Origin: Bacillota bacterium
GTDB lineage: Bacteria > Bacillota > UBA994 > UBA5500
DNA: 46,707 nt
Direction of reading: 5' to 3'
Assembly (NCBI GenBank): GCA_012735505.1
Contig: JAAYHE010000005.1
Span: forward strand, 1-46,707
Shown here one piece after another: positions 18,679 to 39,012 of the stretch. The position numbers and the translations under genes are program-made. The notes beneath the pieces were generated by a model. It was given only the letters and a program-made list of their open reading frames with translations. It searched no databases and was not told where the DNA came from. Each line of letters begins with the position of its first letter. Position 1 is the first letter of the stretch.

Positions 18679-19108
18679 TAGACCCCACTCCCTTCCCAGG
18701 TAGTATATGATTGCTACAAAAACCATATACAGGCGGCGCTCTCTAGCTGATCTTAAGACAAGAAACCGGTGCTTTAGGAGGCTGCTGAAAAAGGCCTCTA
18801 GGGTACGGGGAGGCCTATCCATGCCGGCCCATCGTTCCGGTCGGTCGTGGTTATGCTCGCGCGCATTGTCCGCCGCTGGCGTTGCGGTCATCCTCGTGCG
18901 CTGGTAGCCAGCGGCTGTTGGTAAGACTTAGTCGCCAAGGGGAGCGGCCAGAAGTCAGGAAACCAAAATTTATTGCTGCCCGCTCCTTTATCCTCGGCTC
19001 CTTCGCTCTTTTGGCTATAGCTTCCATGCGCTCTGCGGATGATGCGCAACGCCGCTTGTGTACAGGTAGATGAGCAATAATGGTTCGCTTTAAGCGATAG
19101 GTTTTATA
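18679..19108. other. 430-bp GC-rich intergenic region with possible mobile-element remnant
   Basis: No convincing gene is seen. The middle (about 18760-18930) is richer in G+C than its surroundings and is open on both strands only as chance frames. GGCTGCTGAAAAAGG at about 18779-18793 looks like an insertion-sequence terminus, but no second end or transposase is visible. CATATACTA (reverse strand, about 18699-18707) resembles a sporulation sigma -10 element ahead of ytxC, without a clear -35. Confidence 0.4.
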
Positions 19109-20740
19109 TCAGCCCTGCAGCAAGCTGTGTAGGAGCCTCTCGAGCAGCTTAGGCAAGATCTCCCGGGAAAATGGCACATGGATCCTCTCGGTGAACTTAT
19201 GAATATCGCGCCCGAAGGCACCCATATTGACAGCGGGGGCATCAATATGGCTGAGGTCTTCTAAAGGCAAATGATATGCCGTCCCCCAAGTCGGACAATT
19301 AGCTTTCATCACTTCCACTACTTCGGCAGCATCTTGTAATGAAACGTAGCTGCTATCCGAAATGCCGAGATAAAATTCTTCGTGCTTGAGACGCACCCCT
19401 AGTTCAGAAGCATAAGCCTGTAAATCACACACGGCTTGCATCACATGCAGCTCTTTGGCTGTTTCACGCCGATTGCGGATATGTGGGTAATAAGGTGGCG
19501 CCAGGGCGATCACAATTTTTGGATCGCGGTTGGGACAATGGCGATGGGTCTCGTGCACTAACTCTAAGGTTAAGCGTTGCAGATCTGTCCCTTCGGCCTG
19601 CAAACGGCTCGTCAGATTTTCTATATTTTGCAGTAGCTCATCGCCATGAGCTGCAAGACTTTGCTCCCATAATTCGGCGAAGGTCAAGACCTGGGGTTGC
19701 CATTCTAAACGGCTAAGGGGTTTGCCAGCGATTTTCTCCCAGGCTTGGGTCGATGCCCGATACTTGTCCCAAGCTGCTGCCATTGCTTCCTCGCACAAGG
19801 CAACTAACTTATCCATCATCACTTGGGGCGAAGCAGCTAAAGTAAAGAGGTTAAAGAATCCCCAAGCAGCTACCGGCGTGGAAACATTATATTTCTCTTT
19901 CATATCTCCAGCTACCAATAAGGTTGGAGGAAAGGAGACCTCTCCTGCCACGCTGTCGCAGAATTCAGGATTTAACTCCAGTCGGCTGGTGACTTCGGCT
20001 AACAGTAGGTGCGAGTTAAGGCCACTATAGATAGTACCTGCATGTGTCTCCTTGCCTACACAATAGATCAGAGGCAGCAGTTTACCATCGCTACCCGTCT
20101 GGATAACATGCCCTTCATCGACAATGCCATGTGACTCGCTATTGAGCGCAGCCACGTAATCTAGCCCATGCTCGAGTTGCAGTTGACGCAGGAGCCCGAT
20201 AGCATGCCGCATCCCAAGCGAGTTATTTTCTTCATCGGGAACAGTCAACAAGAGGAGGTTACCAGAAAGTTCTTCCAGATTTGCCGCATATTTTTCGATC
20301 AAAGCCACATGACTAGCCAGCCCATAGAGCATATCCATAGTGCCGCGCCCAAAAAGCCATTCTCCGCTTTCCAGGTCGGCGCACGCAGCTTCGGGCAAGA
20401 TTTCTGGGTTTGACTTAAAGGCTTGGGTTAGTTTTTCAGCATCAAAGGCTAGATCTTTAAAAACTCTATAATCTTCAATCCCTACAACGTCATGATGACT
20501 TAATAAGATTATTGTTCTATCTCCCTTGCCACGCACTAACGCCGCCACTACTGCTGGTTTGTTAGGAGCATCTAATGGTAGTAGGTGCAAATAATCGGGG
20601 TGTGACTGAAAATAAGGATTTTCGGCTAGCAACGAGTGGACGTAACGCGCTAATTCTCCTTCTCCAGGGCTTTGCGTCACGCTCTGATAAGACATGAATT
20701 GGGGCAGTAGCTGCCATGCCCGTTCACCAATAGTCATCAT
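19109..20740 (-). CDS. RocB-like M20 family peptidase
   Basis: About 543 aa, matching the length and motifs of the RocB group of M20 zinc peptidases, implicated in arginine utilisation in Bacillus. Metal-site motifs are SHHDVVGIED (about 83-92), GRGTMDMLYG with the bridging Asp, and VPDEENNS with the catalytic and ligand Glu residues. No signal peptide. The substrate is not known. The start is the ATG at 20740, six bases after GGAGG; the next codon is also ATG and either could be used. Being longer than usual M20 enzymes (about 400 aa) is normal for RocB. It diverges from the cas genes, with about 240 bp between them that hold no clear feature. Confidence 0.85.
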   Translation of the reverse strand: MMTIGERAWQLLPQFMSYQSVTQSPGEGELARYVHSLLAENPYFQSHPDYLHLLPLDAPNKPAVVAALVRGKGDRTIILLSHHDVVGIEDYRVFKDLAFDAEKLTQAFKSNPEILPEAACADLESGEWLFGRGTMDMLYGLASHVALIEKYAANLEELSGNLLLLTVPDEENNSLGMRHAIGLLRQLQLEHGLDYVAALNSESHGIVDEGHVIQTGSDGKLLPLIYCVGKETHAGTIYSGLNSHLLLAEVTSRLELNPEFCDSVAGEVSFPPTLLVAGDMKEKYNVSTPVAAWGFFNLFTLAASPQVMMDKLVALCEEAMAAAWDKYRASTQAWEKIAGKPLSRLEWQPQVLTFAELWEQSLAAHGDELLQNIENLTSRLQAEGTDLQRLTLELVHETHRHCPNRDPKIVIALAPPYYPHIRNRRETAKELHVMQAVCDLQAYASELGVRLKHEEFYLGISDSSYVSLQDAAEVVEVMKANCPTWGTAYHLPLEDLSHIDAPAVNMGAFGRDIHKFTERIHVPFSREILPKLLERLLHSLLQG

Positions 20741-20979
20741 AGCCCACCTCCAAGCCAATGGTTATTACTTAATCCTAAGAAATAGAAGCATTCTTGTATT
20801 CATATTGGCTCTGGGTATGCATTTGTCCTGCTAAAGTGAAAGCGAAAACTATTTAGTGTCGCAGAACTAAATTGTTCGCATATTCACCCCAAAAAAACAG
20901 TTTTTATTTTTAGGAGGTAAATACCTTGGCGAAATAGAATGATAATATAGTGCAATCACACAACGAGAGGAGGGTTACC

Positions 20980-22446
20980 ATGTTGCAGTATACGGGGCAT
21001 CCCTTTATTGATATCGGTATAGCAACGATTGTGGCTTTCGCAAGCAAGACTCATCCCCAACAACTCGAGCTAGAAGATCTCGATGCTATAGCCGATTACT
21101 TGGAGGAGTGCTATACCCAGCAACCTATGACTTCCTTTCTTTCGGTGGTGTTCCCAAATTCGGGCTTTACGCAACCAGCTTACAATAAACTGCCGCAAAA
21201 GCGAATCCAATATGCCCGGAAAGTGCTGCGCTTGTACCGGCCAGAATCTTTGCGTGCAAAAAATACCCGATGCATTTTTACCGGCCAACCAGCAGCGGGG
21301 ATGCCCCTCGACTTAGATAATAAATTGCCTCCCGGCCATAGTTACAGACAACATATACCCTTAACCACTGGCGAGGGCATTATCAACTACCACCCCAACG
21401 AGATGAATGGCATACCTATTTCCGGGCAAGCACTTCTAGCTTTACATGCACTGCCTTTAGGCTGCGCTAAGGTAGGAGGACGCCTATTAGCGATACACGC
21501 TAGTGACAACGATGCGACGCTCTATTGCGCCAGACACTTCCTACATAACAACATGCGCAGCATCGAGAAAGCAAGGGAAATTGGTGCTACTAAATTACCA
21601 GAACCTGCAGAAAATGTGGCGACCCTCTTAATTAAACAGTTACTAGCAATGATAAAGGAACGGCAAAAACAACAAGAATTCGATGCACCTGCTTCTATTA
21701 CCGCCTACTACTTTACAAACAGCGGCCAAGGTCCGGACCTACAAATCTTTCATATACCACTAGAAGTTTACGATTTTCTTTCTACCATGCTAAGTGACGA
21801 TTACCGACAAAAATGGGAGCAAATCTGCGAACGAGCCTGGGAAGTTTCAAGCCAACTCTCAGCTAAACAAAATAGTGAGGAGCCTCCCCCGACTTATAAC
21901 ATTTTGTATGAAGAACTCTTACAGCTACCAACAACTGCAGCTCACTTTATTAGTCATTATTTATTACGCCGGCCGTTTGTCTCCAAACGCAAAGGTGACC
22001 CTCGTAGGTTTTATTCAACAATAAATGAAGCGGAACTGGTGTCATGGCGGCTGACAGAATCATTTTTGAGAAAGGTGGTTTCTATGGAGCCAGCACGTAT
22101 TGCCGAAATCAAAAATCTAGGCGACTCTCTGGCAGAGTATATTCACAGCGAAAATGATAAACGACTTTTCAACAGTCTGCTAAATGCTCAACGCTACGAC
22201 CAATTGCGAGCAGCCCTAATTCGAGCTAATGTGGCCTGCCTACGCAGACGTCAAGAACCCCTATTGCGCCTGAAACCCTATCTGGCAGTTTTTGAAGAGG
22301 CGGAAGGCCTCCAATATGCAGATTGGCGTTTAGCGCGTGACCTCGTGATTATTCGCGTAGTAGAACAGCTCCACGAATATGGGTGGCTAAAAGCACATGC
22401 CGATGACTTAGATTTAGATCAGGGTCCAATCGAAGCTGCTAGATAA
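20980..22446 (+). CDS. cas8b: CRISPR-associated protein Cas8b/Cst1 (type I-B)
   Basis: About 488 aa. It matches the Cst1 large-subunit pattern of type I-B Cascade: a helical N terminus, a central HIPLTTGEGIINYHPNEMNG stretch, the ALLALHALPLG-x-GGRLLAIHASD region, and a long helical C-terminal half. In the complex this subunit recognises the PAM and recruits Cas3. The CXXC...CXXC pair that names the family is largely lost: only Cys 98 of the first pair remains (CIFTG) and the second site reads ISGQA. The ATG at 20980 follows GAGGAGGG; the GTG at 20950 has no site. It leads a three-gene rightward operon, 21 bp before cas7. Confidence 0.82.
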   Translation: MLQYTGHPFIDIGIATIVAFASKTHPQQLELEDLDAIADYLEECYTQQPMTSFLSVVFPNSGFTQPAYNKLPQKRIQYARKVLRLYRPESLRAKNTRCIFTGQPAAGMPLDLDNKLPPGHSYRQHIPLTTGEGIINYHPNEMNGIPISGQALLALHALPLGCAKVGGRLLAIHASDNDATLYCARHFLHNNMRSIEKAREIGATKLPEPAENVATLLIKQLLAMIKERQKQQEFDAPASITAYYFTNSGQGPDLQIFHIPLEVYDFLSTMLSDDYRQKWEQICERAWEVSSQLSAKQNSEEPPPTYNILYEELLQLPTTAAHFISHYLLRRPFVSKRKGDPRRFYSTINEAELVSWRLTESFLRKVVSMEPARIAEIKNLGDSLAEYIHSENDKRLFNSLLNAQRYDQLRAALIRANVACLRRRQEPLLRLKPYLAVFEEAEGLQYADWRLARDLVIIRVVEQLHEYGWLKAHADDLDLDQGPIEAAR

Positions 22447-22467
22447 GTAAAAAAAGGAGCATTAAAA

Positions 22468-23535
22468 ATGGCTTTCATCACCGGCTTAGTACTCATCGAC
22501 GCCCCTGCTTCTGCCCTCAATAATATCGGAAAAATAGAAGGGACTCTGACAGACAATAGCACGGGTGTAAAATTCATTCGCACTAGAGAAGGAGCCTTTC
22601 CTTATGTTTCAGCCCAGGCATTTCGCTATTGGTGGCGGCGCACCTTAGAAAAAGGTAACTGGGGATGGAAATCTGCCCCTGTTTTTCGGGAGGCGAAAAT
22701 TGCTTATACCGAAGCCAACCCTATCGCCTGGTGGGATGATGACTTATTTGGCTACATGCGAGCGCCAGCAAGCAAAGCGTCAGCACGCAAGAAGACTGCT
22801 GATGTAGGCTTGCCTGTCAAAGAAGCCGTTACTCGTATTTCTCCCCTACGCGTTGGTACCCTAGTCGCCCTGGCGCCTGTACCACTCGTTAACGATTTTG
22901 GTGTTATGGCACGTCACGAAGGAGACCCGGTGCCCTTTGAACACCAATTCTATCGAGCAACCCTACACACACTCCTATCGCTAGACCTGCATGCGGTCGG
23001 GACTTTTACCTATATTAAGCGCTCTGGCCATTTACACCTAGACGAAATTCGCGTAAAGGAAGCAGAAAAAGCCGGTCTAGAAAAATTGCCGGCTGCAAAA
23101 GCTTATCGCTTACCCCTAGAGGAACGCTTACTCCGCATTACAGCGCTATTGGAGGCCCTAACTAGGCTGGAGGGTGGCGCCAAACAAGCTATACACTATA
23201 CCGATGTTAGCCCCGACATTTTGGTTTTGGCTGTGACAAAAGGTGGCAATCACATTTTTCGCCATATATTCACCACCGATGCTCAAAGGCAGCCCCAGCT
23301 ACACCTAGCAGCCCTACGTGAAACCCTGACGGCATGCGCCGATGATATCCTCTCTCCTATTTATTTCGGCTGGCCCCACGGGTATCTTGACCACGAACGC
23401 GAACGCCTAGAAGCAGCGCTAGCCAGTAACCAACTCGGGGCAGGCTGGGCTAACCGCGTGGTAATTCAACATCCACGCCAAGTAGTGGCCGCCCTGTGCC
23501 GAGATTTGGCCGATAATCCTACTTGGTTAGCTTAG
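22468..23535 (+). CDS. cas7: CRISPR-associated protein Cas7 (Cst2/DevR family)
   Basis: 355 aa. The N terminus (GLVLIDAPASALNNIG) and the FPYVSAQAFRYWWRRTLE block are the usual opening of Cas7 proteins of the Cst2/DevR type, with the RRM-like fold that forms the Cascade backbone on crRNA. Later, RISPLRVGTLVALAP and the DFGVMARHEGDPVPFEHQFY block (about 140-170) are also family-like. The C terminus includes SPIYFGWPHGYLDHER. GGAGC precedes the ATG. Cas7 typically also cleaves nothing itself in type I; its role here is crRNA/target binding. It lies between cas8b and cas5 in the standard I-B order. Confidence 0.92.
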   Translation: MAFITGLVLIDAPASALNNIGKIEGTLTDNSTGVKFIRTREGAFPYVSAQAFRYWWRRTLEKGNWGWKSAPVFREAKIAYTEANPIAWWDDDLFGYMRAPASKASARKKTADVGLPVKEAVTRISPLRVGTLVALAPVPLVNDFGVMARHEGDPVPFEHQFYRATLHTLLSLDLHAVGTFTYIKRSGHLHLDEIRVKEAEKAGLEKLPAAKAYRLPLEERLLRITALLEALTRLEGGAKQAIHYTDVSPDILVLAVTKGGNHIFRHIFTTDAQRQPQLHLAALRETLTACADDILSPIYFGWPHGYLDHERERLEAALASNQLGAGWANRVVIQHPRQVVAALCRDLADNPTWLA

Positions 23536-23547
23536 GGGCAAAGCTAT

Positions 23548-24258
23548 ATGCGAGTGTTAAGAATTGTAGCGGAGGGAGACGTAACATCCTTTCGCTATCC
23601 CTACTTCATGGTGGGGGTCCAGCCAACTTACGAAATGCCACCGCCAGCCACCATTTATGGGCATGTATGTAGCGCCTTAGGCGAATGGCTCGACCCTGAA
23701 GGCGTACAATTTGCTTATCATTTTACTTACAAAACTCGTTTTGTCGATCTAGAGCACACCCACCTAGTCAAGGCTAGCCGTGGCAAGATGCCAGATAGTA
23801 ACCATGCAAAAGCATTAGAGGGCAAGATTAACCCGCTGCAGCGTGAACTGCTCTTTAAACCTCGCCTAGTTCTTTACCTAAACCGACCCGAATGGAAAGA
23901 CAACTTTGCGAGTCCTCGTTACGCAGTGGTTCTCGGCAGGTCGCAAGATCTATTTACGTATACTAGTATTGAAGTTATCGAACTAGAGCAAAGGCAGGAA
24001 GCATACTTAGAACACACCATAGCACCAATAGATATGGCGGCGCGCACTCCGAGAGGTGTTGTAACTTTAATGCCTCGTTTTATTAGTTACCAGCAGCATC
24101 GATTTCCCACTTTTGAACGCTATGTTGTTTTGACCCGCCGGGTTAGGACCCAGGAGCTGCTGCGCTCGCCCCAAGAATCCTTGACTTTCTGGACAGACCC
24201 TTCTGCACCTAAAGTTAACGGGCTCCAACTGGGCTTGCTTTTTCATCGCTGGGTTTAA
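23548..24258 (+). CDS. cas5: CRISPR-associated protein Cas5 (type I-B)
   Basis: 236 aa. The N terminus (VAEGDVTSFRYPYFMVGVQP then PPPATIYGHVCSALGEWL) is the characteristic Cas5 RAMP opening, and the length is normal. Cas5 caps the 5' handle of crRNA in Cascade. It starts 13 bp after cas7 with only a weak ribosome-binding site, so it probably relies on translational coupling. It is the last clear gene of the rightward operon; cas3, cas4, cas1 and cas2, which normally follow in I-B loci, are missing. Confidence 0.9.
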   Translation: MRVLRIVAEGDVTSFRYPYFMVGVQPTYEMPPPATIYGHVCSALGEWLDPEGVQFAYHFTYKTRFVDLEHTHLVKASRGKMPDSNHAKALEGKINPLQRELLFKPRLVLYLNRPEWKDNFASPRYAVVLGRSQDLFTYTSIEVIELEQRQEAYLEHTIAPIDMAARTPRGVVTLMPRFISYQQHRFPTFERYVVLTRRVRTQELLRSPQESLTFWTDPSAPKVNGLQLGLLFHRWV

Positions 24259-24262
24259 CCCA

Positions 24263-24347
24263 TGCTAATGACCTGACATAAGGGACTGAAATGAAATATT
24301 CGCTTCTAGTGACCAATAGCTTTGACCCGCTTAAAGGGGATTGTAAC
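24263..24347 (+). repeat. Pair of degenerate CRISPR-repeat-like sequences
   Basis: Two segments between cas5 and its terminator end like clostridial I-B repeats (typical 3' end AAGGGATTGAAAC): CATAAGGGACTGAAAT at 24277-24292 and TTAAAGGGGATTGTAAC at 24331-24347. Both are preceded by TGACC (24269, 24323). They match each other at about half of 30 positions ungapped and better with one gap. The interval between the presumed repeats is about 25 nt, shorter than usual. It may be a decayed array, a guide-like RNA or chance. Confidence 0.35.
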
Positions 24348-24368
24348 ACAGCAAGCGCAAATTATTGA
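24291..24368 (+). CDS. Possible 25-codon ORF between cas5 and terminator
   Basis: ATG at 24291 preceded by AAGGGA (six-base spacing) opens a 25-codon frame ending TGA at 24366. The peptide begins MKYSLLVTNSFDPLKG and matches nothing I recognise. It overlaps both repeat-like segments, and the Shine-Dalgarno-like AAGGGA is also the repeat-like core, so the two readings compete. It could be the stump of a lost downstream cas gene. Confidence 0.2.
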   Translation: MKYSLLVTNSFDPLKGDCNTASANY

Positions 24369-24383
24369 TAGGAGCCCAAAGGA

Positions 24384-24418
24384 AAAACAGGGGAAACGTT
24401 AAGCGTTTCCCCTGTTTT
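24384..24418. terminator. Bidirectional terminator between cas5 and cas6
   Basis: A perfect 15-bp inverted repeat (AAAACAGGGGAAACG / CGTTTCCCCTGTTTT) with a 5-base loop. It is U-rich on both sides and separates the rightward cas8b-cas7-cas5 genes from leftward cas6. Confidence 0.95.
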
Positions 24419-24431
24419 ATACTCCATTTAT

Positions 24432-25391
24432 CTATCCAGCAGACTGACGATTCTTGACGCGATATTGCCCCAGGCCGAAAGCAGTATTCTTCCCTACGTG
24501 CAATACTTCTCCCCAGCGAACTAAGGGCATAAACGGAGCTAAATCCCCTTGTAACACTACCCTACCGACCAAACCCCCTAGTTTCATGCGGCTCTTTTGG
24601 CGCCTAGAGTAACGCTCCCAATCAAACCATTCTAGTGAGCTTTCGCTAATAGCAATATCGGCAGCTTGCAGCAATAGTTCATCGTGTGCTCCTACGGGGC
24701 TGCCCTGCACCGATGAAAGATCATAGACTCGCCTAAGCAACGCCCGCACTAGTAGTTCAAACGTAAAATCATCCCGCAATCTGCCCTCCCGCTTTAGCCT
24801 GGTCGGGGTGATAAATTCGAGCACCATGTTTGTCGCCGGACCATCAAAGACTAAGTCAGGGGTTGTGATAATAAGATCATCTACTGCTTCAATGATGTTT
24901 TGGCCTGCAGCATAAATCGTCATACCCTGCTGGCGGTAAGGATGTTGTGCCCTAACCTCTTGCAAAGCCATTCTCCCTCGGCCTCTACCGATGCCGTTAT
25001 GCCCCATCTTCTGCAAAGCAATTACGAGGTAGGGCAAATAATCCAAAGCCTGCCCAATAAGAACCAAGCCAAATTCCATTACTTCCCCAGGGTAATAAAT
25101 CGTTCTCTGTGTTAGCGGTGGCTTAATCACATAAGGACGAGCAACTGCTTGCTTGTCCCGCACAGTGGCAAAAATGTTGCGGTAAATACACCGGTCACTC
25201 ACTAGGCAAGAATCACAATCTGGCGGTATTGTTACACACATCATCTGGCGCAAAGCACTACCTAAAGCTCCGCGCAAAGTAGAGCCCTGATAGGGCGGCA
25301 AATAGAGTTCTTCCTCCGCCCGATAGCTAACCCAAAACATTCCAGCCCGGAGCGGTGCCATTAGTTCTGCTACATGAAAGAATGACGACAT
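24432..25391 (-). CDS. cas6: CRISPR pre-crRNA endoribonuclease Cas6
   Basis: 319 aa. It fits the Cas6 family with the C-terminal domain of PF10040. The N-terminal half has the PYQGSTLRGALGSALRQMMC block and a Cys motif (C59, C62, C68 followed by IYRNIF) seen in this family. The C-terminal RAMP glycine-rich segment (LGGLVGRVVLQGD, GKNTAFGLGQYRV) lies at about 271-312. The enzyme would cut repeat RNA to make crRNAs. It is transcribed towards the other cas genes from the tRNA side, so it has its own promoter. Its presence without an array in the window suggests arrays elsewhere or a relic system. Confidence 0.85.
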   Translation of the reverse strand: MSSFFHVAELMAPLRAGMFWVSYRAEEELYLPPYQGSTLRGALGSALRQMMCVTIPPDCDSCLVSDRCIYRNIFATVRDKQAVARPYVIKPPLTQRTIYYPGEVMEFGLVLIGQALDYLPYLVIALQKMGHNGIGRGRGRMALQEVRAQHPYRQQGMTIYAAGQNIIEAVDDLIITTPDLVFDGPATNMVLEFITPTRLKREGRLRDDFTFELLVRALLRRVYDLSSVQGSPVGAHDELLLQAADIAISESSLEWFDWERYSRRQKSRMKLGGLVGRVVLQGDLAPFMPLVRWGEVLHVGKNTAFGLGQYRVKNRQSAG

Positions 25392-25573
25392 TGCCTACAC
25401 GCCTTTCAGATGTCTTAGCGCTGACTTCTGCATCGTCCTTTGCTTTTCCTTTATGTATCAGAATACAAGTGGCTACTTTCACGTTAGCAAGCCCCTATTC
25501 AAAAAATTAGTTTGGGCCGGATGAAAAAACGGAAGAACTTTTGATTTTGGAGAGCAGCTTGCAGAAAACAAAA

Positions 25574-25604
25574 ACGCCGTGAGGGCTACAAACCCTTACG
25601 GCGT
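25574..25604 (-). terminator. Terminator of the tRNA cluster
   Basis: On the reverse strand ACGCCGTAAGGG pairs with CCCTCACGGCGT across a 7-base loop, followed by TTTTTGTTTTC. It lies 14 bp past tRNA-Val(GAC). Confidence 0.92.
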
Positions 25605-25617
25605 CATTATTATCATA

Positions 25618-25694
25618 TGGTGGGAGCAACAGGGATCGAACCTGTGACCTCTACCGTGTCAAGGTAGCGCTCATCCCAACTGAGCTATGCCCCC
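25618..25694 (-). tRNA. tRNA-Val (GAC)
   Basis: A 77-nt cloverleaf with encoded CCA. The anticodon stem CTACC/GGTAG encloses loop TTGACAC, anticodon GAC. The acceptor stem GGGGGCA pairs with TGCTCCC. It is last in the leftward cluster. Confidence 0.97.
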
Positions 25695-25710
25695 ACGTTA
25701 TACACATAAT

Positions 25711-25799
25711 TGGTGCCGAGGACCGGAATCGAACCGGTACGGACCTCGCGGTCCGCGGGATTTTAAGTCCCGTGCGTCTGCCTGTTCCGCCACCCCGGC
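25711..25799 (-). tRNA. tRNA-Leu (TAA)
   Basis: An 89-nt class II tRNA with a long variable arm (GCGGACCGCGAGGTCCGT region) and encoded CCA. Anticodon loop CTTAAAA gives TAA. Acceptor GCCGGGG pairs with CCTCGGC. Confidence 0.97.
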
Positions 25800-25806
25800 A
25801 TCTATC

Positions 25807-25881
<75 letters not shown>

Positions 25882-25914
25882 TCGCTAGCCGCGCTGGCAA
25901 AAAAGGGCAAAATA

Positions 25915-25989
25915 TGGAGCGGAAGACGAGATTCGAACTCGCGACCCTCGCCTTGGCAAGGCGATGCTCTACCACTGAGCTACTTCCGC
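25915..25989 (-). tRNA. tRNA-Gly (GCC)
   Basis: 75 nt with encoded CCA. Anticodon stem CGCCT/AGGCG with loop TGCCA region gives GCC. Acceptor GCGGAAG pairs with CTTCCGC, discriminator T. Confidence 0.97.
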
Positions 25990-26001
25990 TAATAATCAAA
26001 G

Positions 26002-26077
<76 letters not shown>

Positions 26078-26082
26078 ATGTA

Positions 26083-26158
26083 TGGCGGTGCCGAAGGGAA
26101 TCGAACCCTCGATCTCCGGCGTGACAGGCCGGCATGTTAACCGCTACACCACGGCACC
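26083..26158 (-). tRNA. tRNA-Asp (GTC)
   Basis: 76 nt with encoded CCA. Anticodon loop CTGTCAC gives GTC. Acceptor GGTGCCG pairs with CGGCACC. The discriminator G is the usual one for tRNA-Asp. Confidence 0.97.
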
Positions 26159-26161
26159 GCA

Positions 26162-26237
26162 TGGTGGGCACAACAGGGCTCGAACCTGTGACCCCCTGCT
26201 TGTAAGGCAGGTGCTCTCCCAACTGAGCTATGCGCCC
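26162..26237 (-). tRNA. tRNA-Val (TAC)
   Basis: 76 nt with encoded CCA. Anticodon loop CTTACAA gives TAC. Acceptor GGGCGCA pairs with TGTGCCC (one G-U pair). It is the first tRNA after the promoter at 26251-26279. Confidence 0.97.
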
Positions 26238-26250
26238 ATGACAGTTTCTA

Positions 26251-26279
26251 ATTATACAGGATGTTAGCCCTTTGGTCAA
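26251..26279 (-). promoter_or_regulatory. Promoter of the seven-tRNA operon
   Basis: On the reverse strand TTGACC (26274-26279), a 17-bp spacer and a perfect TATAAT (26251-26256), about 14 bp upstream of tRNA-Val(TAC). Confidence 0.92.
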
Positions 26280-26410
26280 GACTTCATTTTCCTGTATGCC
26301 GCGCATGAATCTAACATCGGCGGCGCAGAATCTACTATAGCACTTTTCTCGTTGAATGTAAATGGAATATATTTGTAGACAATCTCGCTCAGCAAGATCT
26401 GTTTTTCTTA

Positions 26411-26485
26411 TGGTACGCCCGAGAGGAATCGAACCTCCGCACCCAGATCCGGAGTCTGGTGCTCTATCCACTGAGCTACGGGCGC
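26411..26485 (-). tRNA. tRNA-Arg (CCG)
   Basis: 75 nt with encoded CCA. Anticodon loop CTCCGGA gives CCG. Acceptor GCGCCCG pairs with CGGGCGT (one G-U pair). It stands 173 bp apart from the other seven and has its own promoter. A 7-bp hairpin (ATCTTGC/GCGAGAT) lies at about 26382-26398 but has no U run. Confidence 0.97.
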
Positions 26486-26499
26486 ATCTTCACTAGAAC

Positions 26500-26528
26500 A
26501 TTATAACCGAAAACGAACAAAAGTGCAA
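26500..26528 (-). promoter_or_regulatory. Promoter of tRNA-Arg(CCG)
   Basis: On the reverse strand TTGCAC (26523-26528), a 17-bp spacer and TATAAT (26500-26505), 14 bp upstream of the tRNA. Confidence 0.88.
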
Positions 26529-26589
26529 GTTGGCACCTTCAGTTGCTTCACCTGACTGCTAGTAGCTAGCGCTAACACTATTTTATGTG

Positions 26590-27990
26590 TCAATCTAGCT
26601 CGTTTACCAACTGCTTAAAAACTCGTCCTCTTTCTTCAAAGTCTCGAAACATGTCAAAGCTAGCGCAAGCTGGTGATAAAACAACTGCACTGCCAGCACG
26701 TGCCTGCTGCTGCGCCCATAGCAGCGCATCCCGCAAGGAGGAGAATTGTTCCATAGGCATGGTTGCCTCTTGTTTCTCGAGCTCTCGCTCTACCGCTTGG
26801 GCAATGGCAGGTGCAGTTTGGCCAATTAGGGCCAGTGCGTCTACTCGCCCGACCACAGCTTGAGCCAAGGGTTCAAATGGAATTTTTTTATCATAGCCGC
26901 CGGCGATGAGAACAACCGGGTATGGCAGTGCTGCCAGACCGGCACACGTCCGAGTAGGGGAGCTAGCAATCGAATCATTGTAATAGCGAACGCCATGCAG
27001 CTCTCGTACTAACTCCAGCCGGTGCTCAACCCCAGTAAAAGATGTAGCGACCTGCCGCATGGCGGCTAGCGACACACCTTTAGCTTGACAAAGGGCAGCA
27101 GCAGCCATGACATTTTCGATATTGTGGTCGCCCAACAGCTGAATTTCATTAATATGGCAGAGTACCCTGTCTTGCCCATCGCGACGCAGTATTATCTGCT
27201 GATCTTGTAGAAAAGCTCCTTCTGTTACAGTCGACTGGCGACTGAAATAACAAACATATCCCGGCGTGAGGGACGCAAACCCTCGTGTAAGCTCGTCGTC
27301 GTAATTGAGCACTGCTACATCTTGTGGCTTTTGCCAACGGAGCACATTAGTCTTGACATCCTGATATTCAGCTAAGGACGTATGATAATCAAGGTGATTC
27401 GGGCTCAGGTTAGTAACAATGGAAGCACCAGGGCTGACTTGCATCTGCATCAGCTGAAAACTGCTCAACTCTAGCACTATTTCGGCTGTAGCCGGAATAC
27501 TAAGTACTTCTTCGATTAAGGAATAACCAATATTGCCCCCCAGATGAACCTCTCGCCCGTCAGCCTTTAGCATCTCGGCTACTAGAGTCGTAGTTGTAGT
27601 CTTACCATCGCTACCTGTAATGCCAGCGATAGGCGCTGCTGCCAAAGCAAAAAGCAGTTCGATTTCACTAGACAAGCGAGCTCCAGCCGCGACTGCCTGC
27701 TTCAGTTCGGGCAAATCTGGCCGCATAAAGGGCGTACGGAAAAGAAATTGGCAACCGTCTAGATGCTTCAGGTAATCAGACCCCAGATGAAGTTCCAAGG
27801 GAATATCCTGCAGAGCTGCCAACTCTTGCGATAGCTGCTCGGCTTCTTTTTGGTCGCAAGCCATCACCTGGCAACCAATAGAGTGTAAGAAGCGGATAAG
27901 CGGCACCCCACTGCGCCAGCCGATCCCTAAGACTCCCGCTTTCTTGCCTTTCAATTCTTCAATTATGGCCAACTGCCTAGCGGTGAGCAT
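26590..27990 (-). CDS. murD: UDP-N-acetylmuramoyl-L-alanine--D-glutamate ligase
   Basis: About 466 aa, the normal length. It has an N-terminal Rossmann-like domain, a Mur ligase central domain with the P-loop GITGSDGKTTTTT (about 117-129), the NLSPNHLDYH segment with the metal and phosphate ligands, and a C-terminal ligase domain (YNDSIASSPTRTCAGLAALP, then DALLWAQQQA and LSPACASFDMF). The SPACASFD motif is diagnostic for MurD. It adds D-Glu to UDP-MurNAc-L-Ala in the cytoplasm. The ATG at 27990 follows GAGGAGG; an in-frame ATG at 28011 lacks a site. It stands alone here instead of in a division/cell-wall cluster. Confidence 0.97.
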   Translation of the reverse strand: MLTARQLAIIEELKGKKAGVLGIGWRSGVPLIRFLHSIGCQVMACDQKEAEQLSQELAALQDIPLELHLGSDYLKHLDGCQFLFRTPFMRPDLPELKQAVAAGARLSSEIELLFALAAAPIAGITGSDGKTTTTTLVAEMLKADGREVHLGGNIGYSLIEEVLSIPATAEIVLELSSFQLMQMQVSPGASIVTNLSPNHLDYHTSLAEYQDVKTNVLRWQKPQDVAVLNYDDELTRGFASLTPGYVCYFSRQSTVTEGAFLQDQQIILRRDGQDRVLCHINEIQLLGDHNIENVMAAAALCQAKGVSLAAMRQVATSFTGVEHRLELVRELHGVRYYNDSIASSPTRTCAGLAALPYPVVLIAGGYDKKIPFEPLAQAVVGRVDALALIGQTAPAIAQAVERELEKQEATMPMEQFSSLRDALLWAQQQARAGSAVVLSPACASFDMFRDFEERGRVFKQLVNELD

Positions 27991-33381: not shown

Positions 33382-33972
33382 TTGGTAACGAATATCTTCA
33401 CCCCCTATTCCCCCATCAGCAGTTACGACCAGGCAGAGTTACATAAGCAGTTCAGCCGCCTAGCCTTAGTAACCGGTGGAAAACTTAATACTCTCGGCTT
33501 ACAACCGAATCAACCGGCACAAATCTTAATCAGCGACTTACAGTGGAAAAGCTACTCCGGCGATATTCAGCTCTTGCGCACTTGGGCTGTGCAAACCATT
33601 ATTCGCTTACATATAAGAAGTTCGACCACAGGTCAGCTACTGTGGGGCAACGTTTACGGTTCTGCCTCGGGCGTGCCGCTAATTGGAGGCACACGCCTGT
33701 TATCCAACTGGCCAGTAGCACTACTAACAAAATTGCTGCCAACTACGGCCTATTGGCAGCTAGCCCACACCCAGGAACCCTTCACTCTACGCATCTGCGG
33801 CTCTCACGTCAGTTTAAGCGTCTATCGTTTTTATGAAAGCAATTTTTATCTCGCAGCCTTAGATTATCTGGCGGATCTCGCCAGACGTTGCCAGGACGTG
33901 CTGGACGATGAACGGCCTACAGTTTGCACCCGTTTAGTGGACCTGCCTTACAACCAAGACAAACAAACCTAA
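33382..33972 (+). CDS. Hypothetical protein
   Basis: 196 aa; I do not recognise a family. It has no signal peptide or membrane segment. The middle (ILISDLQWKSYSGDIQLLRT to TTGQLLWGNVYG) alternates hydrophobic and polar residues like beta strands, and the C-terminal 50 residues look helical (FYESNFYLAALDYLADLARR). TTG at 33382 follows GGGAGGG at an eight-base spacing, a good site despite the rare start. It lies 156 bp after the transporter terminator and 77 bp before the NUDIX-like gene, on the same strand. Confidence 0.6.
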   Translation: MVTNIFTPYSPISSYDQAELHKQFSRLALVTGGKLNTLGLQPNQPAQILISDLQWKSYSGDIQLLRTWAVQTIIRLHIRSSTTGQLLWGNVYGSASGVPLIGGTRLLSNWPVALLTKLLPTTAYWQLAHTQEPFTLRICGSHVSLSVYRFYESNFYLAALDYLADLARRCQDVLDDERPTVCTRLVDLPYNQDKQT

Positions 33973-34049
33973 CAAGAGGCCAGCTAGACAACCCCTAAGC
34001 CCTAGGATACTATTAAATCACATGTCAGAACGCATAAGGAGATTAGACC

Positions 34050-34661
34050 ATGATGAACCATTTACAACAACGTTACGGCGACGAGCAAGTGTTGGTGATA
34101 CCAGCGTCACTAGTAGACCATCTACCAGGCGGCCTATTACCTCTGATAGATTTAACCAATCTACCGTATGAATTCATTTTTCGTTACCAAGCGGAGCACA
34201 ACCCGGCCTGGCGTCAGTTAATACCGTATATCGTCCTCAAACAAGCAAACCGTTATTGGCTTACCCGGCGGCTCAGCACCCAAGGGGAACAACGCTTGCA
34301 TAACCGCTATGCCCTAGGCGTAGGCGGACATATCAACCCTGTCGATAAGCAAGGCACCTCGCCCATCATCAGCGCCCTCTACCGCGAATTGGAAGAGGAG
34401 CTAGACTTAGGAGGTTGGCTACCCCTTGATCCTCAACCGCAGGCACTGCTAAACGATCTGACTTCTGCCGTCAGCCGCGATCACCTCGGGTTAGTATTTG
34501 TTATCGAAGTGCCTAAGTCAGTAACTGTGAGGGTAAAAGAACGAGAAAAAATGGTCGGCCGGTGGGCTGATCTAGTGACTATTCGCCAGCGTTTCTACGA
34601 ACTGTTAGAAGGCTGGTCCCAATTAGTGCTTAGATATTTGGAAAAACAAGAAAGACCCTAG
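34050..34661 (+). CDS. NUDIX-like hydrolase
   Basis: 203 aa. A C-terminal NUDIX-type segment (about 90-185) carries RELEEELDL, which matches the RE-x2-EE-x-x core of the Nudix box, preceded by GVGGHINPVD. The first Glu of the classical G-x5-E is not seen at its usual place; Asp is near. The N-terminal 80 residues (PEFIFRYQAEHNPAWRQLIPY region) are typical of longer Firmicute NUDIX proteins annotated as phosphoesterases. Substrate unknown. GGAG precedes tandem ATGs at 34050 and 34053. Confidence 0.8.
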   Translation: MMNHLQQRYGDEQVLVIPASLVDHLPGGLLPLIDLTNLPYEFIFRYQAEHNPAWRQLIPYIVLKQANRYWLTRRLSTQGEQRLHNRYALGVGGHINPVDKQGTSPIISALYRELEEELDLGGWLPLDPQPQALLNDLTSAVSRDHLGLVFVIEVPKSVTVRVKEREKMVGRWADLVTIRQRFYELLEGWSQLVLRYLEKQERP

Positions 34662-34714: not shown

Positions 34715-35611
34715 CTAATTGCCTTCCCCTACTACTACCTGAGCCAGGGGCGGTAGGGCGGCTTGTAATTGATTAAACGTAGCCAGTTCTACGGTCAAGG
34801 GTAATCCGTCTACAGTTAAGGTGCGTTGTCCGCTAATGCCATCTATAGCACCTGCCGCTACCATGCTTGCCAGTGTTTCTTTCAGCATAGCTTCACTACA
34901 AGCCAACTCGCTGCGCTTAAGCCATGTTAGCAAAACTGCTAAAGCATAACCACCCCAATTGCTAACCCCACAAGCAATAAGGATAGAGGCCGGCGACACA
35001 CAGGCGATCCATTTTTCCGGTCCTAACAATATCTCGGCTTCGTGCAAACGTGTACCAAAACCAAGTTCGTTGCCGCCATCTCCTACTGCAATGGTAGGAA
35101 TTCCTGCAGCCTTGGCCCCTACAAACAAGGGGTCAAAATGCGCCACCTGCTCTGTTACCTCTATACCACTCGCATTGTAATACCTACCATTAGCCGCTTG
35201 CCCGCAGCGTTCTATTGCCACCACTGCATCTGGCTCATACTGGAGGAGCCTGTCCAATGTAGGAGCAACCCCTGGCTCAAAACCAAGTAGCGGCAATTGC
35301 AAATTGAGTGTTTGCGTGCCAGCTGCAAAAATAGGAACAGCGCCTGCATCAGTAAAGATGATAGGCCTGGTACCCACCTGCTGCAGCGCTAGCGCTAAGA
35401 CTAACGTGCCTAGCGGGCCGTCTGTCTCCCAAGCGCTAAAGCGGCCGATATAAAAACCACTAATTAACACTACTGTTCGGGCTTTGCGTAACACATTAAC
35501 TGCTTCTGCCAAAGCCTGAGGGCATGCCAACACCGGGATACGCCGGCGGCCAGGATCCTGGGCCAAAACTGTTGCTAGTTCTTGACATCTGGCTTGCATT
35601 GTTCTTTTCAC
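34715..35611 (-). CDS. DUF4392 protein, D-glutamate cyclase-type C-terminal half
   Basis: 298 aa. The sequence fits the DUF4392 domain: a Rossmann-like fold with [49 protein letters not shown] and a Gly-rich [12 protein letters not shown] near residue 180. In the vertebrate enzyme DGLUCY this domain is fused to a DUF1445 domain and the protein converts D-glutamate to 5-oxo-D-proline. Here the two are separate genes sharing a GTGA overlap, so they very likely act together. The GTG at 35611 has AAGGAC upstream. Activity in bacteria of this type is inferred. Confidence 0.85.
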
Positions 35612-36393
35612 CAGTCCTTCAATAATTCTACATTGCTTAGATCCGTGACCAACATATGTCCGGGAGCATGCGTGATCATGATAGGTGGCTTGCTAGCTAA
35701 AGCGGCAGCTTGCGGAGTGACGCCACAAGCCCAAAAAACTGGTATTTCACCCTGGCGCACGGGCACCGGGTCTCCATAATCAGGCTTGTCTAGATCACTA
35801 ATGCCGATCAGGCTAGGGTCACCTAAATGAATGGGAGCTCCATGCACTGCTCGCAGACGGCTAGTAATTTCGATAGCTTGAATGGCTTGATTGGCTAACA
35901 TGGGGCGCATACTCACAACCATTGGCCCCTGAAAACGGCCCGCTGGGCGGCAAGGAATATTGGTGCGATACATGGGCACATTACAGCCGAGTTCGATATG
36001 CCTAACGGGGATATTTGCTGCCAACAATTCTGCTTCAAAGCTGAAGCTACAGCCTATCAAGAAACCAACAAAATCATCCTGCCATAGCTCTGCGATATCC
36101 AACACTTCGTCCACCAGTTCTCCCTGCCGGTAAACACGATAACGCGGCAGGTCGGTACGCAAGTCGGCACCAGGAGCAACTAAACGCAAGAAGGGATTCC
36201 CCACATCGGTAACCTCGAGTACAGGGCATGGTTTAGGATTAGCTTGACAAAACCGCAGGAAATCAAAGGCCCAATCGGCCGGTAAAATTGCTAGGTTGGC
36301 TTGGGCATAGTCGCCACACAGTCCGGCAGTAACGCTGCTCCATTTTCCCATTCGGCAAGCATGACGTACATCCCTAGGCGAATCAAATCTCAC
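35608..36393 (-). CDS. DUF1445 protein (putative hydro-lyase), D-glutamate cyclase-type N-terminal half
   Basis: 261 aa, the normal length for the DUF1445/UPF0317 putative hydro-lyases. Conserved blocks seen: [22 protein letters not shown]-like [26 protein letters not shown] (about 111-124), RTNIPC near residue 148, VVSMRPM, and a C-terminal [11 protein letters not shown] with THAPGHM. The clustered Cys, Ser and His residues are plausible active-site parts. The GTG at 36393 follows AGGGAGG. It precedes and overlaps the DUF4392 gene by four bases. Confidence 0.88.
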
Positions 36394-36518
36394 GATAATA
36401 CCTCCCTGCCATTTTCCCTTTGTAACTAATTCTTGCTGTAATGCCCAATCCCTTGTAGGTGACAGAATATTATATAAGGCTAGCGCAATAAACTAGCCGA
36501 GTCACAAGAAAGGGGGCT

Positions 36519-37040
36519 ATGCCGTTGTCTACTTTGAAAAAGACAGGTGTTCTAGTACTGATGTTAGTGCTGCTTTGCAGCTGCGCCACCGTCCCTCTAA
36601 TTGATAGCCCTGCTCAATCGGAAGAAATAACAGTAACCCTGTATTTTGCCGACGCCACTGCTAGCTATCTCAAAGCAGAGGAACGAGTGTTAGAGCGAAC
36701 TGACGAGCCGGTAGCCGCCTTAATTGTCAAAGCGCTGATTGCCGGGCCTCGGGAGAAAAGCTTGTATCCAACTATACCACCGGAAACACAACTCTTAGGC
36801 CTAGAAGTTAGCGATGGTATTGCTCATGTCAACTTTAGTCCGGAGATTGCCACTAAGCACTGGGGCGGTTCTACAGGCGAACTACTCACCATCGGCTCTT
36901 TGGTGAATAGTTTGACTGAACTGTCGGAGATCAAGGCTGTGCAGTTTCTTATTGATGGAGAAATACGTGAATCGATTTGGGGACATGGCATCACCTCAGA
37001 ACCCATTGAACGCTTACCTGAGCTGATCGCCCCAAATTAG
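36519..37040 (+). CDS. GerM-domain (GerMN) lipoprotein
   Basis: 173 aa. The signal peptide ends in a lipobox (LLCSC, lipidated Cys about residue 22), so the protein is anchored outside the membrane. One GerMN domain follows (about 37-165), with VTLYFADATASYLKAEER, ALIVKALIAGP and VQFLIDGE. GerM in Bacillus is needed for sporulation and germination and has two such domains; this protein has one, as in many clostridial homologues. AAAGGGGG precedes the ATG. The gene is followed directly by the promoter of the small RNA at 37085. Confidence 0.9.
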   Translation: MPLSTLKKTGVLVLMLVLLCSCATVPLIDSPAQSEEITVTLYFADATASYLKAEERVLERTDEPVAALIVKALIAGPREKSLYPTIPPETQLLGLEVSDGIAHVNFSPEIATKHWGGSTGELLTIGSLVNSLTELSEIKAVQFLIDGEIRESIWGHGITSEPIERLPELIAPN

Positions 37041-37048
37041 CTTAACTT

Positions 37049-37078
37049 TTGACAAGCAAATCACTGTACGGCTATAAT
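37049..37078 (+). promoter_or_regulatory. Promoter of the small RNA gene
   Basis: A perfect TTGACA (37049-37054), an 18-bp spacer and a perfect TATAAT (37073-37078). It starts just after the gerM-like stop and no coding sequence lies downstream on this strand before pyk. Confidence 0.92.
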
Positions 37079-37084
37079 AAATTG

Positions 37085-37217
37085 GATTTGGAAAAATGCC
37101 TTGGGTCCCGCACCGATAGGTGGCAGGTCCGAGAGCGACCCTTACTTGTCCTTAGATACACCGTGGACAGAGAGATCCAGGAGCAAGTTCCAGTCGGAAC
37201 GCCCTTGGGTCTTTTTA
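37085..37217 (+). ncRNA. Orphan structured small RNA, unassigned
   Basis: The predicted transcript is about 133 nt, from the strong promoter to a U run at 37212-37216. Visible stems are CACC/GGTG (37111-37122), GGTC/GACC (37126-37140), TGTCC/GGACA (37147-37169) and a terminator made of GATCCAGGAGC (37174-37184) with GCCCTTGGGTC (37201-37211), enclosing GTTCC/GGAAC. CCTTGGGTC also occurs at 37099-37107, so it could pair with GATCCAGG instead of the terminator arm. That is a riboswitch-like arrangement, yet no gene follows in sense; it ends 44 bp from the pyk stop. It does not match 6S, SRP or a riboswitch class I know. Confidence 0.75.
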
Positions 37218-37260
37218 TTTGGGGGTGATGGCTTAGCAGAAAACTGCGCGCAACCTCAGT

Positions 37261-39012
37261 TTAATCCCGAATAGTAGCTATACCGCGATAAACGAGCCCG
37301 TGGGTTACATCTAGCGTTACGAGCTGCTCGTCGGTGAAGCGTTTAGTGGCTCCGGTAACGCCTACAATCACAGGCAAACCGAGGTTTAGACCTACGATTG
37401 CACCATGGGACGTCAGTCCTCCTTCCTCGGTAATCAGCCCGGCTGCTTGTTCTAAAGCTGGAATGTACACTTTATTGGTACTGGTTGTCACCAATATGCT
37501 GCCAGGTTTCATCTTCCGAGTGGCCTCGGCAGCTGTCTTGCAGACAACTACAGGCCCAGTGGCAGCACCCTTGCCGAGCCCCGTACCGCGAGCCAACACG
37601 TCACCCACAACTTGCACTTTGATTAGATTGGTAGTGCCTGGTACGCCTACTGGCACCCCAGCAGTGAGTACGACTAGATCACCGTTCTTAATCAAGCCTG
37701 CATTTAAAGCTGCGGCAATAGAAGCGCTTATCATTTCATCGGTATTAGTCACCCTGTCTCCTAAGACAGGATGTACTCCCCAGGATAGGTTCAGTCTACG
37801 GGCCACCTCGTCTTTGATTGTGAAGGCAATAATAGGGGTCTGCGGCCGATAACGGGACACCATACGAGCCGTACTACCCGATTCGGTAGAGGTGATGATG
37901 GCGGCCGCCTTCAGATCTGCGGCTGCTTGCACAGTAGCATGACTAATGGCATCAGTAATATTGGCTGCACGGCTTGATTCACGATCCGCCAAGATGCGGG
38001 GTTTTAGCGCTTGCTCCACTCGCAATGCAATGCGCACCATGGTTTGTACCGCTTCCAGTGGATAATTGCCATTGGCCGTTTCTCCCGAGAGCATGACAGC
38101 ATCGGTACCATCTAAAATGGCATTGGCAACGTCACTCGCTTCAGCTCGAGTAGGTCGGGGTGAGCGGATCATCGAATCGAGCATTTGGGTAGCTGTGATA
38201 ACTGGTTTCCCGGCCCAATTGCAGGCAGCGATCAGATCCTTCTGCAACAAAGGCACTTCTTCTACGGGAATTTCCACACCTAGGTCGCCCCGCGCTACCA
38301 TGACGCCGTCGGCTACTTGCAAAATGCTGGCGATGTTTTCAACCCCCAGCCGGTTTTCTATCTTGGCGATAATGGGAATATCGCCACCTAGTTCTTCTAA
38401 GAGTCGCCGTAGTTCCAAAACATCGGCAGCGTTACGCACAAACGACTGGGCAATAAAATCAACACCTAATTCTACTCCTAATCTGATATCAGCTATATCT
38501 TTAGCCGATAGCGTAGGCAAAACAATATTGGCTCCTGGCACGTTGACACCTTTGCGACTGTCTACTAGGCCACCAACAACTACGCGGCAATGGATATCAG
38601 GCCCTTGTTTATCCATCACTGTCAGCTCTAGTAAGCCATCATCCAGTAAGATTTGGTCACCTAACTCCACGCCCTCTACTAATGCAGGCCAAGTGATGCT
38701 GACGCCGCGCTCATCTCCCAAACGGTCGGTGCCGTACAAGGTGAAGAACTGGCCTGGTTGGAGGTGGACTGGCCCATGGGCAAAGGATCCAAGACGTATT
38801 TCAGGCCCTTGCGTGTCAAGAATGATAGGCACAAACTTACCTACCGCTTGGCCAACCGCCCGAATACGCTGCAAGCGTGCTCTATGTTCTGCGTGGGAGC
38901 CATGGGAAAAATTAAGCCTGGCTACGTCCACACCAGCCCTAATCAGTTTCTCTAACATCTCTGGTGCATCACTAGCCGGGCCTATGGTAGCAACTATTTT
39001 AGTCTGACGCAT
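37261..39012 (-). CDS. pyk: Pyruvate kinase with C-terminal PEP-utilising domain
   Basis: 583 aa. The barrel carries TKIVATIGPAS at the start, LDTQGPEIRLG, FIAQSFVRNAADV and the VARGDLGVEIP and KPVITATQMLDSM substrate-site motifs (about 240-275). The regulatory C domain spans about 350-470. An extra domain of about 105 aa follows (from GKGAATGPVVV, with TEEGGLTSHGAIVGL), as in Bacillus and clostridial pyruvate kinases; its LTSHGAI resembles the phosphohistidine loop of PEP-utilising enzymes. It makes ATP and pyruvate from PEP. ATG at 39012 with AAGGGGGG upstream. Convergent with the small RNA gene. Confidence 0.98.
   Translation of the reverse strand: MRQTKIVATIGPASDAPEMLEKLIRAGVDVARLNFSHGSHAEHRARLQRIRAVGQAVGKFVPIILDTQGPEIRLGSFAHGPVHLQPGQFFTLYGTDRLGDERGVSITWPALVEGVELGDQILLDDGLLELTVMDKQGPDIHCRVVVGGLVDSRKGVNVPGANIVLPTLSAKDIADIRLGVELGVDFIAQSFVRNAADVLELRRLLEELGGDIPIIAKIENRLGVENIASILQVADGVMVARGDLGVEIPVEEVPLLQKDLIAACNWAGKPVITATQMLDSMIRSPRPTRAEASDVANAILDGTDAVMLSGETANGNYPLEAVQTMVRIALRVEQALKPRILADRESSRAANITDAISHATVQAAADLKAAAIITSTESGSTARMVSRYRPQTPIIAFTIKDEVARRLNLSWGVHPVLGDRVTNTDEMISASIAAALNAGLIKNGDLVVLTAGVPVGVPGTTNLIKVQVVGDVLARGTGLGKGAATGPVVVCKTAAEATRKMKPGSILVTTSTNKVYIPALEQAAGLITEEGGLTSHGAIVGLNLGLPVIVGVTGATKRFTDEQLVTLDVTHGLVYRGIATIRD

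What the first reader, a model, noticed from the sequence alone, without database searches (positions are those of the whole stretch)
37047..37217. Orphan small RNA with consensus promoter and a switch-like terminator
A perfect TTGACA-N18-TATAAT drives a 133-nt transcript with three internal hairpins and a long terminator stem. CCTTGGGTC occurs at 37099-37107 and again as the terminator's 3' arm at 37203-37211, so GATCCAGG can pair with either copy. That is how riboswitches and attenuators work, but nothing is encoded downstream in sense and the next gene, pyk, is convergent. The RNA may be a free-standing regulator, a 6S-type RNA, or a control of read-through antisense to pyk.
Basis: partly seen in the sequence, partly recalled or inferred. 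Interest (0 to 1): 0.66.

Follow-up and report, generated by a model that had tools for sequence, protein, structure and literature searches.

The report
Relic ppGpp-type riboswitch without its genes
The supposed orphan small RNA is the decayed leftover of a known kind of RNA sensor (a ykkC-class, probably ppGpp-sensing, riboswitch) whose transporter genes, still present at the same spot in related bacteria, have been lost here; it is a neat evolutionary relic rather than a new regulator.

Summary
The sequence features are real: TTGACA-N18-TATAAT, a ~133-nt transcribable leader, and a terminator whose 3' arm repeats CCTTGGGTC. But the RNA is not a free-standing novelty. A permissive Rfam scan gives one sub-threshold hit, Guanidine-I (ykkC). 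In three genomes of the same family an intact ykkC riboswitch, with the same promoter and spacing, lies beside the orthologue of window ORF 34050-34661. It is followed by a natA-like ABC transporter operon (the published gene context of ppGpp, subtype 2a, riboswitches) and, where contigs reach, the convergent pyk. The window RNA aligns with those three at about 70% identity (z 13-14.5), gene order is conserved on both sides, and a ribosome-binding-site-like remnant follows the terminator; the transporter operon is gone.

The aptamer is broken. Four of six P1 pairs are lost (at most one in 42 other ykkC RNAs), P2 keeps three of six, conserved positions have changed, and the score against a model built without it is 24 bits, versus 99-101 for its orthologues. 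Promoter and terminator persist. Best reading: an orphaned, decaying ppGpp-type riboswitch that now probably makes only a short, constitutively terminated RNA. 6S and attenuator readings are rejected. Retention for a new role cannot be excluded, but nothing supports it.

The parts
37049..37078 (+). Promoter: TTGACA (37049-37054), 18-nt spacer, TATAAT (37073-37078); orthologous to TTGACA-N18-TAGAAT in G001-G003
37089..37190 (+). Degenerate ykkC-class aptamer (orthologue of an intact subtype-2 aptamer upstream of natA-like ABC genes)
37095..37100 (+). Former P1 5' strand (AATGCC); four of six pairs broken
37127..37134 (+). GTCCGAGA: conserved GGUCCRAG motif. The last base (37134) is A, where the ABC-linked relatives have C, the position the literature uses to tell guanidine-I (A) from subtype 2 (pyrimidine)
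37135..37140 (+). Former P1 3' strand (GCGACC; GGCACT in G001-G003)
37157..37163 (+). UACACCG: conserved ligand-pocket strand, retained
37173..37216 (+). Intrinsic terminator: hairpin 37173-37212 and U tract 37212-37216; its 5' arm includes the P3 3' strand and the P0 3' strand
37221..37237 (+). GGGGGTGATGGCTTAGC: apparent remnant of the ribosome-binding site and first codons of the lost ABC ATPase gene
   Evidence: shuffle p 0.005-0.02
34050..34661 (+). Upstream anchor gene (uncharacterised; no Pfam or NCBIfam hit), 62-65% identical to the gene directly 5' of the intact riboswitch in relatives
37261..39012 (-). Downstream anchor gene pyk, 72-73% identical to the pyk beyond the ABC operon in relatives

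Best explanation
The element is the orphaned, decaying remnant of a ykkC-class riboswitch, most likely the ppGpp-sensing subtype 2a. In the ancestor a sigma-A promoter transcribed an aptamer whose ligand-stabilised P3/P0 pairing prevented the terminator and let polymerase read on into a natA-like ABC transporter operon (mechanism inferred from the published family). In this genome the ABC operon was lost, apparently from close to the start of its first gene, and the aptamer drifted: P1 and much of P2 no longer form and conserved bases changed. Promoter and terminator persist, so the present product is predicted to be a short RNA (about 130 nt) terminated regardless of ligand. Shown by computation: homology, synteny, operon loss, helix breakage. 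Inferred: ancestral ligand, present expression, loss of binding.
For: The only Rfam signal is ykkC (Guanidine-I, 20.7 bits). Same-family genomes carry intact ykkC RNAs (99-101 bits) at the syntenic site, followed by ABC ATPase (PF00005) and two PF06182 permeases and, in G001 and G002 where the contig reaches that far, the convergent pyk. Window and relatives align at about 70% identity from promoter to terminator, z 13-14.5, with identical promoter spacing. A model built without the window finds it at 24.3 bits, E 6e-6 over 1.2 kb. Decay: P1 has 2 of 6 pairs (5-6 of 6 in all 42 others), P2 3 of 6, six of 27 near-invariant columns changed; P1 duplex -1.6 versus -8 to -10 kcal/mol in G001-G003. 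Internal control: the genome's other two ykkC RNAs still score 103 and 99 bits. The closest ABC proteins elsewhere in the genome are distant paralogues, 41% and 28% identical. natA-linked ykkC RNAs are ppGpp riboswitches (PMC5912903; a natA aptamer that binds pppGpp/ppGpp is used in PMC12373219).
Against: Promoter and terminator look functional, and the -10 box matches consensus better than in the ABC-linked relatives, which would also fit continued selection on transcription. The Rfam score is far below the gathering score (20.7 versus 63). The remnant ribosome-binding site is only modestly significant. Only one genome of this genus is held, so decay cannot be confirmed across species, and the genome is a draft in 87 contigs.
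Confidence: 0.84

Rival explanations
1. Exapted free-standing small RNA: after losing its operon the leader was kept as a trans-acting or ligand-modulated RNA, comparable to riboswitch-derived RNAs described elsewhere.
For: Full consensus promoter and a surviving terminator; overall fold still better than shuffles.
Against: Found in a single genome. Aptamer helices broken, terminator about 7-10 kcal/mol weaker than in the orthologues, no new conserved structure seen. No target examined.
Confidence: 0.06
2. Working riboswitch with changed specificity that controls read-through antisense to pyk.
For: Position 37134 is A as in guanidine-I rather than C as in the ABC-linked relatives; the ACACC pocket strand is kept; pyk lies directly downstream in antisense.
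Against: P1, which pairs in essentially every ykkC RNA examined, is lost, as is much of P2. In the related genomes G001 and G002 pyk has its own hairpin terminator and is not downstream of the leader without genes between.
Confidence: 0.03
3. The terminator hairpin persists because it now ends the convergent pyk transcript or protects pyk from the strong facing promoter; the aptamer itself is dead. This is a refinement of the relic reading, not an exclusive alternative.
For: The strong pyk terminator hairpin seen in G001 and G002 is absent in the window, and the riboswitch hairpin is the nearest strong hairpin beyond the pyk stop.
Against: On the minus strand the hairpin is followed only by UCUCUCUGU, a poor U tract; the stem is weaker than the ancestral one.
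Confidence: 0.2
4. 6S RNA, amino-acid attenuator with leader peptide, or another known RNA family.
For: An ATG (37096) begins a 7-codon frame, MPWVPHR, near the expected 5' end.
Against: No 6S or other Rfam match, even at E up to 5. The orthologues lack this ATG. No regulated gene follows.
Confidence: 0.01

Closest known systems
ppGpp riboswitch (ykkC subtype 2a), natA-linked
   Same: Orthologous site, promoter, aptamer sequence (about 70% identity) and terminator; orthologues precede natA-like ABC operons, the published 2a context
   Different: No downstream operon; P1 and much of P2 broken; the subtype-2 marker pyrimidine is replaced by A; conserved loop and motif bases changed
Guanidine-I riboswitch (RF00442, ykkC subtype 1)
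   Same: Same scaffold; only Rfam family hit (20.7 bits)
   Different: Far below the gathering score; orthologues are subtype 2 by sequence and gene context; no recognisable guanidine gene nearby
PRPP riboswitch (ykkC subtype 2b)
   Same: Same scaffold; probable examples by sequence in this genome and G001 (L037, L039), upstream of a permease-like gene
   Different: The orthologues lack the G at the position thought to be G96 and do not precede purine genes
Trans-acting or solo riboswitch RNAs (e.g. SreA, Rli55, EutX; named from memory, not tested)
   Same: Terminated riboswitch transcript without its own sense gene
   Different: No evidence here of a partner, target or ligand binding; one genome only

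Membership tests
ykkC class (descent) | Recognisable by a covariance model of the class | tested here: met
   Rfam 20.7 bits (sub-threshold); own model without the window 24.3 bits, E 6e-6 over 1.2 kb and 0.0096 genome-wide
ykkC class (descent) | Orthologous intact member at the syntenic site in relatives | tested here: met
Guanidine-I RF00442 | Score at or above the curated gathering threshold | tested here: not met
   20.7 versus 63 bits
ppGpp riboswitch (subtype 2a) | Complete P1 helix | tested here: not met
   2 of 6 pairs; 5-6 of 6 in all 42 other sequences
ppGpp riboswitch (subtype 2a) | Pyrimidine at the position that separates subtype 2 from guanidine-I (C49 in PMC6031431) | tested here: not met
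   A at 37134; C in the ABC-linked orthologues L062-L064; numbering mapped by alignment
ppGpp riboswitch (subtype 2a) | Downstream amino-acid or natA-type genes | tested here: not met
   Lost in the window, present in G001-G003
ppGpp riboswitch (subtype 2a), for the orthologues L062-L064 | Subtype-2 pyrimidine, no G at the G96 equivalent, natA-like operon downstream | tested here: met
   criteria from PMC6031431 and PMC5912903; numbering mapped by alignment, so approximate
ppGpp riboswitch (subtype 2a) | Binds ppGpp and switches termination | not testable with these tools
   needs probing and in vitro transcription
6S RNA | Match to Rfam 6S models | tested here: not met

The most novel reading that the evidence does not exclude
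After operon loss the riboswitch leader was retained and remodelled into a stand-alone RNA, or a changed-specificity switch gating antisense transcription into pyk, so that riboswitch 'orphaning' is a route to new regulatory RNAs.
Probability: 0.06. Interest if true: 0.6.

Novelty: new member of a known kind. Interest (0 to 1): 0.27.

Why it matters
It is a well-anchored example of what happens to a riboswitch when the genes behind it are lost: intact orthologues show the before state, and the window shows aptamer helices breaking while promoter and terminator persist. It also warns that riboswitch-like orphan leaders can be relics, and that a sub-threshold Rfam hit plus synteny can identify them.

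Tried and rejected
6S and other Rfam families: no hit. DNA-level search of 100 relatives found no convincing homologue; the homologues appeared only through the covariance search. Leader-peptide attenuation (MPWVPHR): the ATG is absent in orthologues. ABC operon moved elsewhere in the genome: only distant paralogues found. Unanchored local alignment of the 37217-37262 junction was not significant; only alignment anchored at the terminator was. A literature search for degenerate or orphaned riboswitches gave nothing directly relevant.

Full report
OBSERVATION. The promoter TTGACA (37049) - 18 nt - TATAAT (ends 37078) is present and is a 12/12 match. The two CCTTGGGTC copies and GATCCAGG lie where stated. 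The leader folds better than dinucleotide shuffles (z -2.5) and ends in a hairpin with a TTTTT tract. There is no sense gene before pyk, which is convergent. The claim of three internal hairpins is not borne out by the predicted fold.

IDENTITY. At Rfam's curated thresholds the region has no hit. A permissive scan gives exactly one, Guanidine-I/ykkC, 20.7 bits, E 0.11, aligning CUUGGGUCCCG...CAGGUCCGAGAGC...UACACCG to the ykkC signature. On its own this is weak. A search of 101 genomes with RF00442 found strong ykkC RNAs in the same genome (C41, 71.5 bits; C33, 61 bits) and in the three other held genomes of the family.

SYNTENY. In G001 (L062/L113), G002 (L063/L114) and G003 (L064/L115) a ykkC RNA lies directly downstream of the orthologue of window gene 34050-34661 and is followed by an ABC operon: ATPase PF00005 and two PF06182 permeases (the two permease calls were made on G001). 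The convergent pyk lies beyond it in G001 and, after two further genes, in G002; the G003 contig ends inside the operon. Gene order matches the window over about 12 genes on both sides: the 28161-28982 gene, an M20-like peptidase, enoyl-CoA hydratase-like, hydroxyacyl-CoA dehydrogenase-like, two ChrA-like genes, 33382, 34050, then pyk, a threonine-synthase-like gene and a tRNA nucleotidyltransferase-like gene. (Names without a cited family search are readings of the sequences.) The window lacks the ABC operon and a prs copy, and has gained two D-glutamate-cyclase-like genes and a GerMN-domain lipoprotein. The ABC proteins have only distant paralogues elsewhere in the genome.

HOMOLOGY OF THE RNA. 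From promoter to terminator the window aligns with each of the three intact leaders at about 70% identity (120-125 of 173 positions), 13-14.5 standard deviations above shuffles. The promoter spacing is identical, 18 nt in all four. After the terminator, GGGGGTGATGGCTTAGC aligns with the GGAGGTG ribosome-binding site and start region of the ABC ATPase gene (shuffle p 0.005-0.02). The loss therefore appears to have begun at the start of the operon and run to near pyk.

DECAY. A covariance model from 20 relatives, without the window, scores the three orthologues 99-101 bits, all 42 other ykkC RNAs in the comparison 41-103, and the window 24.3. The window keeps 2 of 6 P1 pairs, against 5-6 of 6 in all 42 others; P2 keeps 3 of 6 (a few others are as low there). 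It changes six of 27 near-invariant columns; only one other sequence (L073, five) comes close. P1 duplex energy falls from -8 to -10 kcal/mol in G001-G003 to -1.6. The structure itself is well supported in the set, with covariation score 0.695 against 0.19 in shuffles. The two other ykkC RNAs of the same genome score 103 and 99, so the decay is specific to the orphan. The terminator is also weaker (-20 against about -27 to -30 kcal/mol) but still formed.

LIGAND OF THE ANCESTOR. Published work assigns natA-linked ykkC RNAs to subtype 2a, which senses ppGpp (PMC5912903), and a natA aptamer that binds pppGpp/ppGpp is used as a reporter part (PMC12373219). The pyrimidine that separates subtype 2 from guanidine-I, and the absence of G at position 96 that separates ppGpp from PRPP aptamers (PMC6031431), fit L062-L064 by alignment. 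In the window the marker position is A (37134), best read as drift because P1 is gone. Calling the PF06182-linked ATPase 'natA-like' rests on my knowledge of how such transporters are annotated.

MECHANISM. In intact members the 3' strands of P3 and of the add-on helix P0 also form the 5' arm of the terminator; ligand binding favours the aptamer and read-through (published for the family; PMC6031431 notes that the end helix takes part in the expression platform). This is inference; expression and binding were not tested.

ALTERNATIVES. A retained stand-alone RNA or an antisense-pyk switch is possible but has no positive support. A more modest possibility is that the hairpin is kept because it protects or ends pyk: G001 and G002 have a strong hairpin terminator directly after pyk that the window lacks.

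LIMITS. Only one genome of this genus is held, so relaxed selection is inferred from one sequence. The genome is a draft; a misassembly could in principle mimic operon loss, but would not explain the aptamer changes.

Noticed in passing
L071:4778-4869 (G004): Another apparently damaged ykkC RNA: the 5' half (CTAGGGTTCC...GGTCCAAGCGG) is kept but the P3/terminator part is missing, directly before what reads as the same permease-like gene that follows the intact ykkC RNA L037/L039; a possible second case of riboswitch decay in this class (35.8 bits).
   Followed up: partly
window 33972-34050: A ribose-phosphate pyrophosphokinase (prs) copy lies between these two genes in G001-G003 but not here; the genome keeps one other prs (C39, 50% identical).
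   Followed up: partly
window 34715-37040: Two D-glutamate-cyclase-like genes (PF14336, PF07286) and a GerMN-domain lipoprotein (PF10646) stand between the anchor gene and the riboswitch promoter here, not in the relatives; apparently a local insertion.
   Followed up: partly
window 37217-37261: The strong pyk terminator hairpin of G001 and G002 is missing; the riboswitch hairpin is now the nearest strong hairpin downstream of pyk.
   Followed up: partly
window 20950-25391: CRISPR-associated gene cluster next to tRNA genes (Cas6 PF10040; a Cas7-like protein with borderline PF01905; neighbours look Cas5/Cas8-like by eye). No CRISPR array found in 19000-26600, where the direct repeats are tRNA genes.
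   Followed up: partly
L061 (own genome C33) and L065 (G003); L072 and L075: Subtype-2-like ykkC RNAs upstream of a sodium:neurotransmitter-symporter-like gene (L061, L065) and upstream of a shared membrane-protein family (L072, L075): gene contexts that I did not check against the literature.
   Followed up: no
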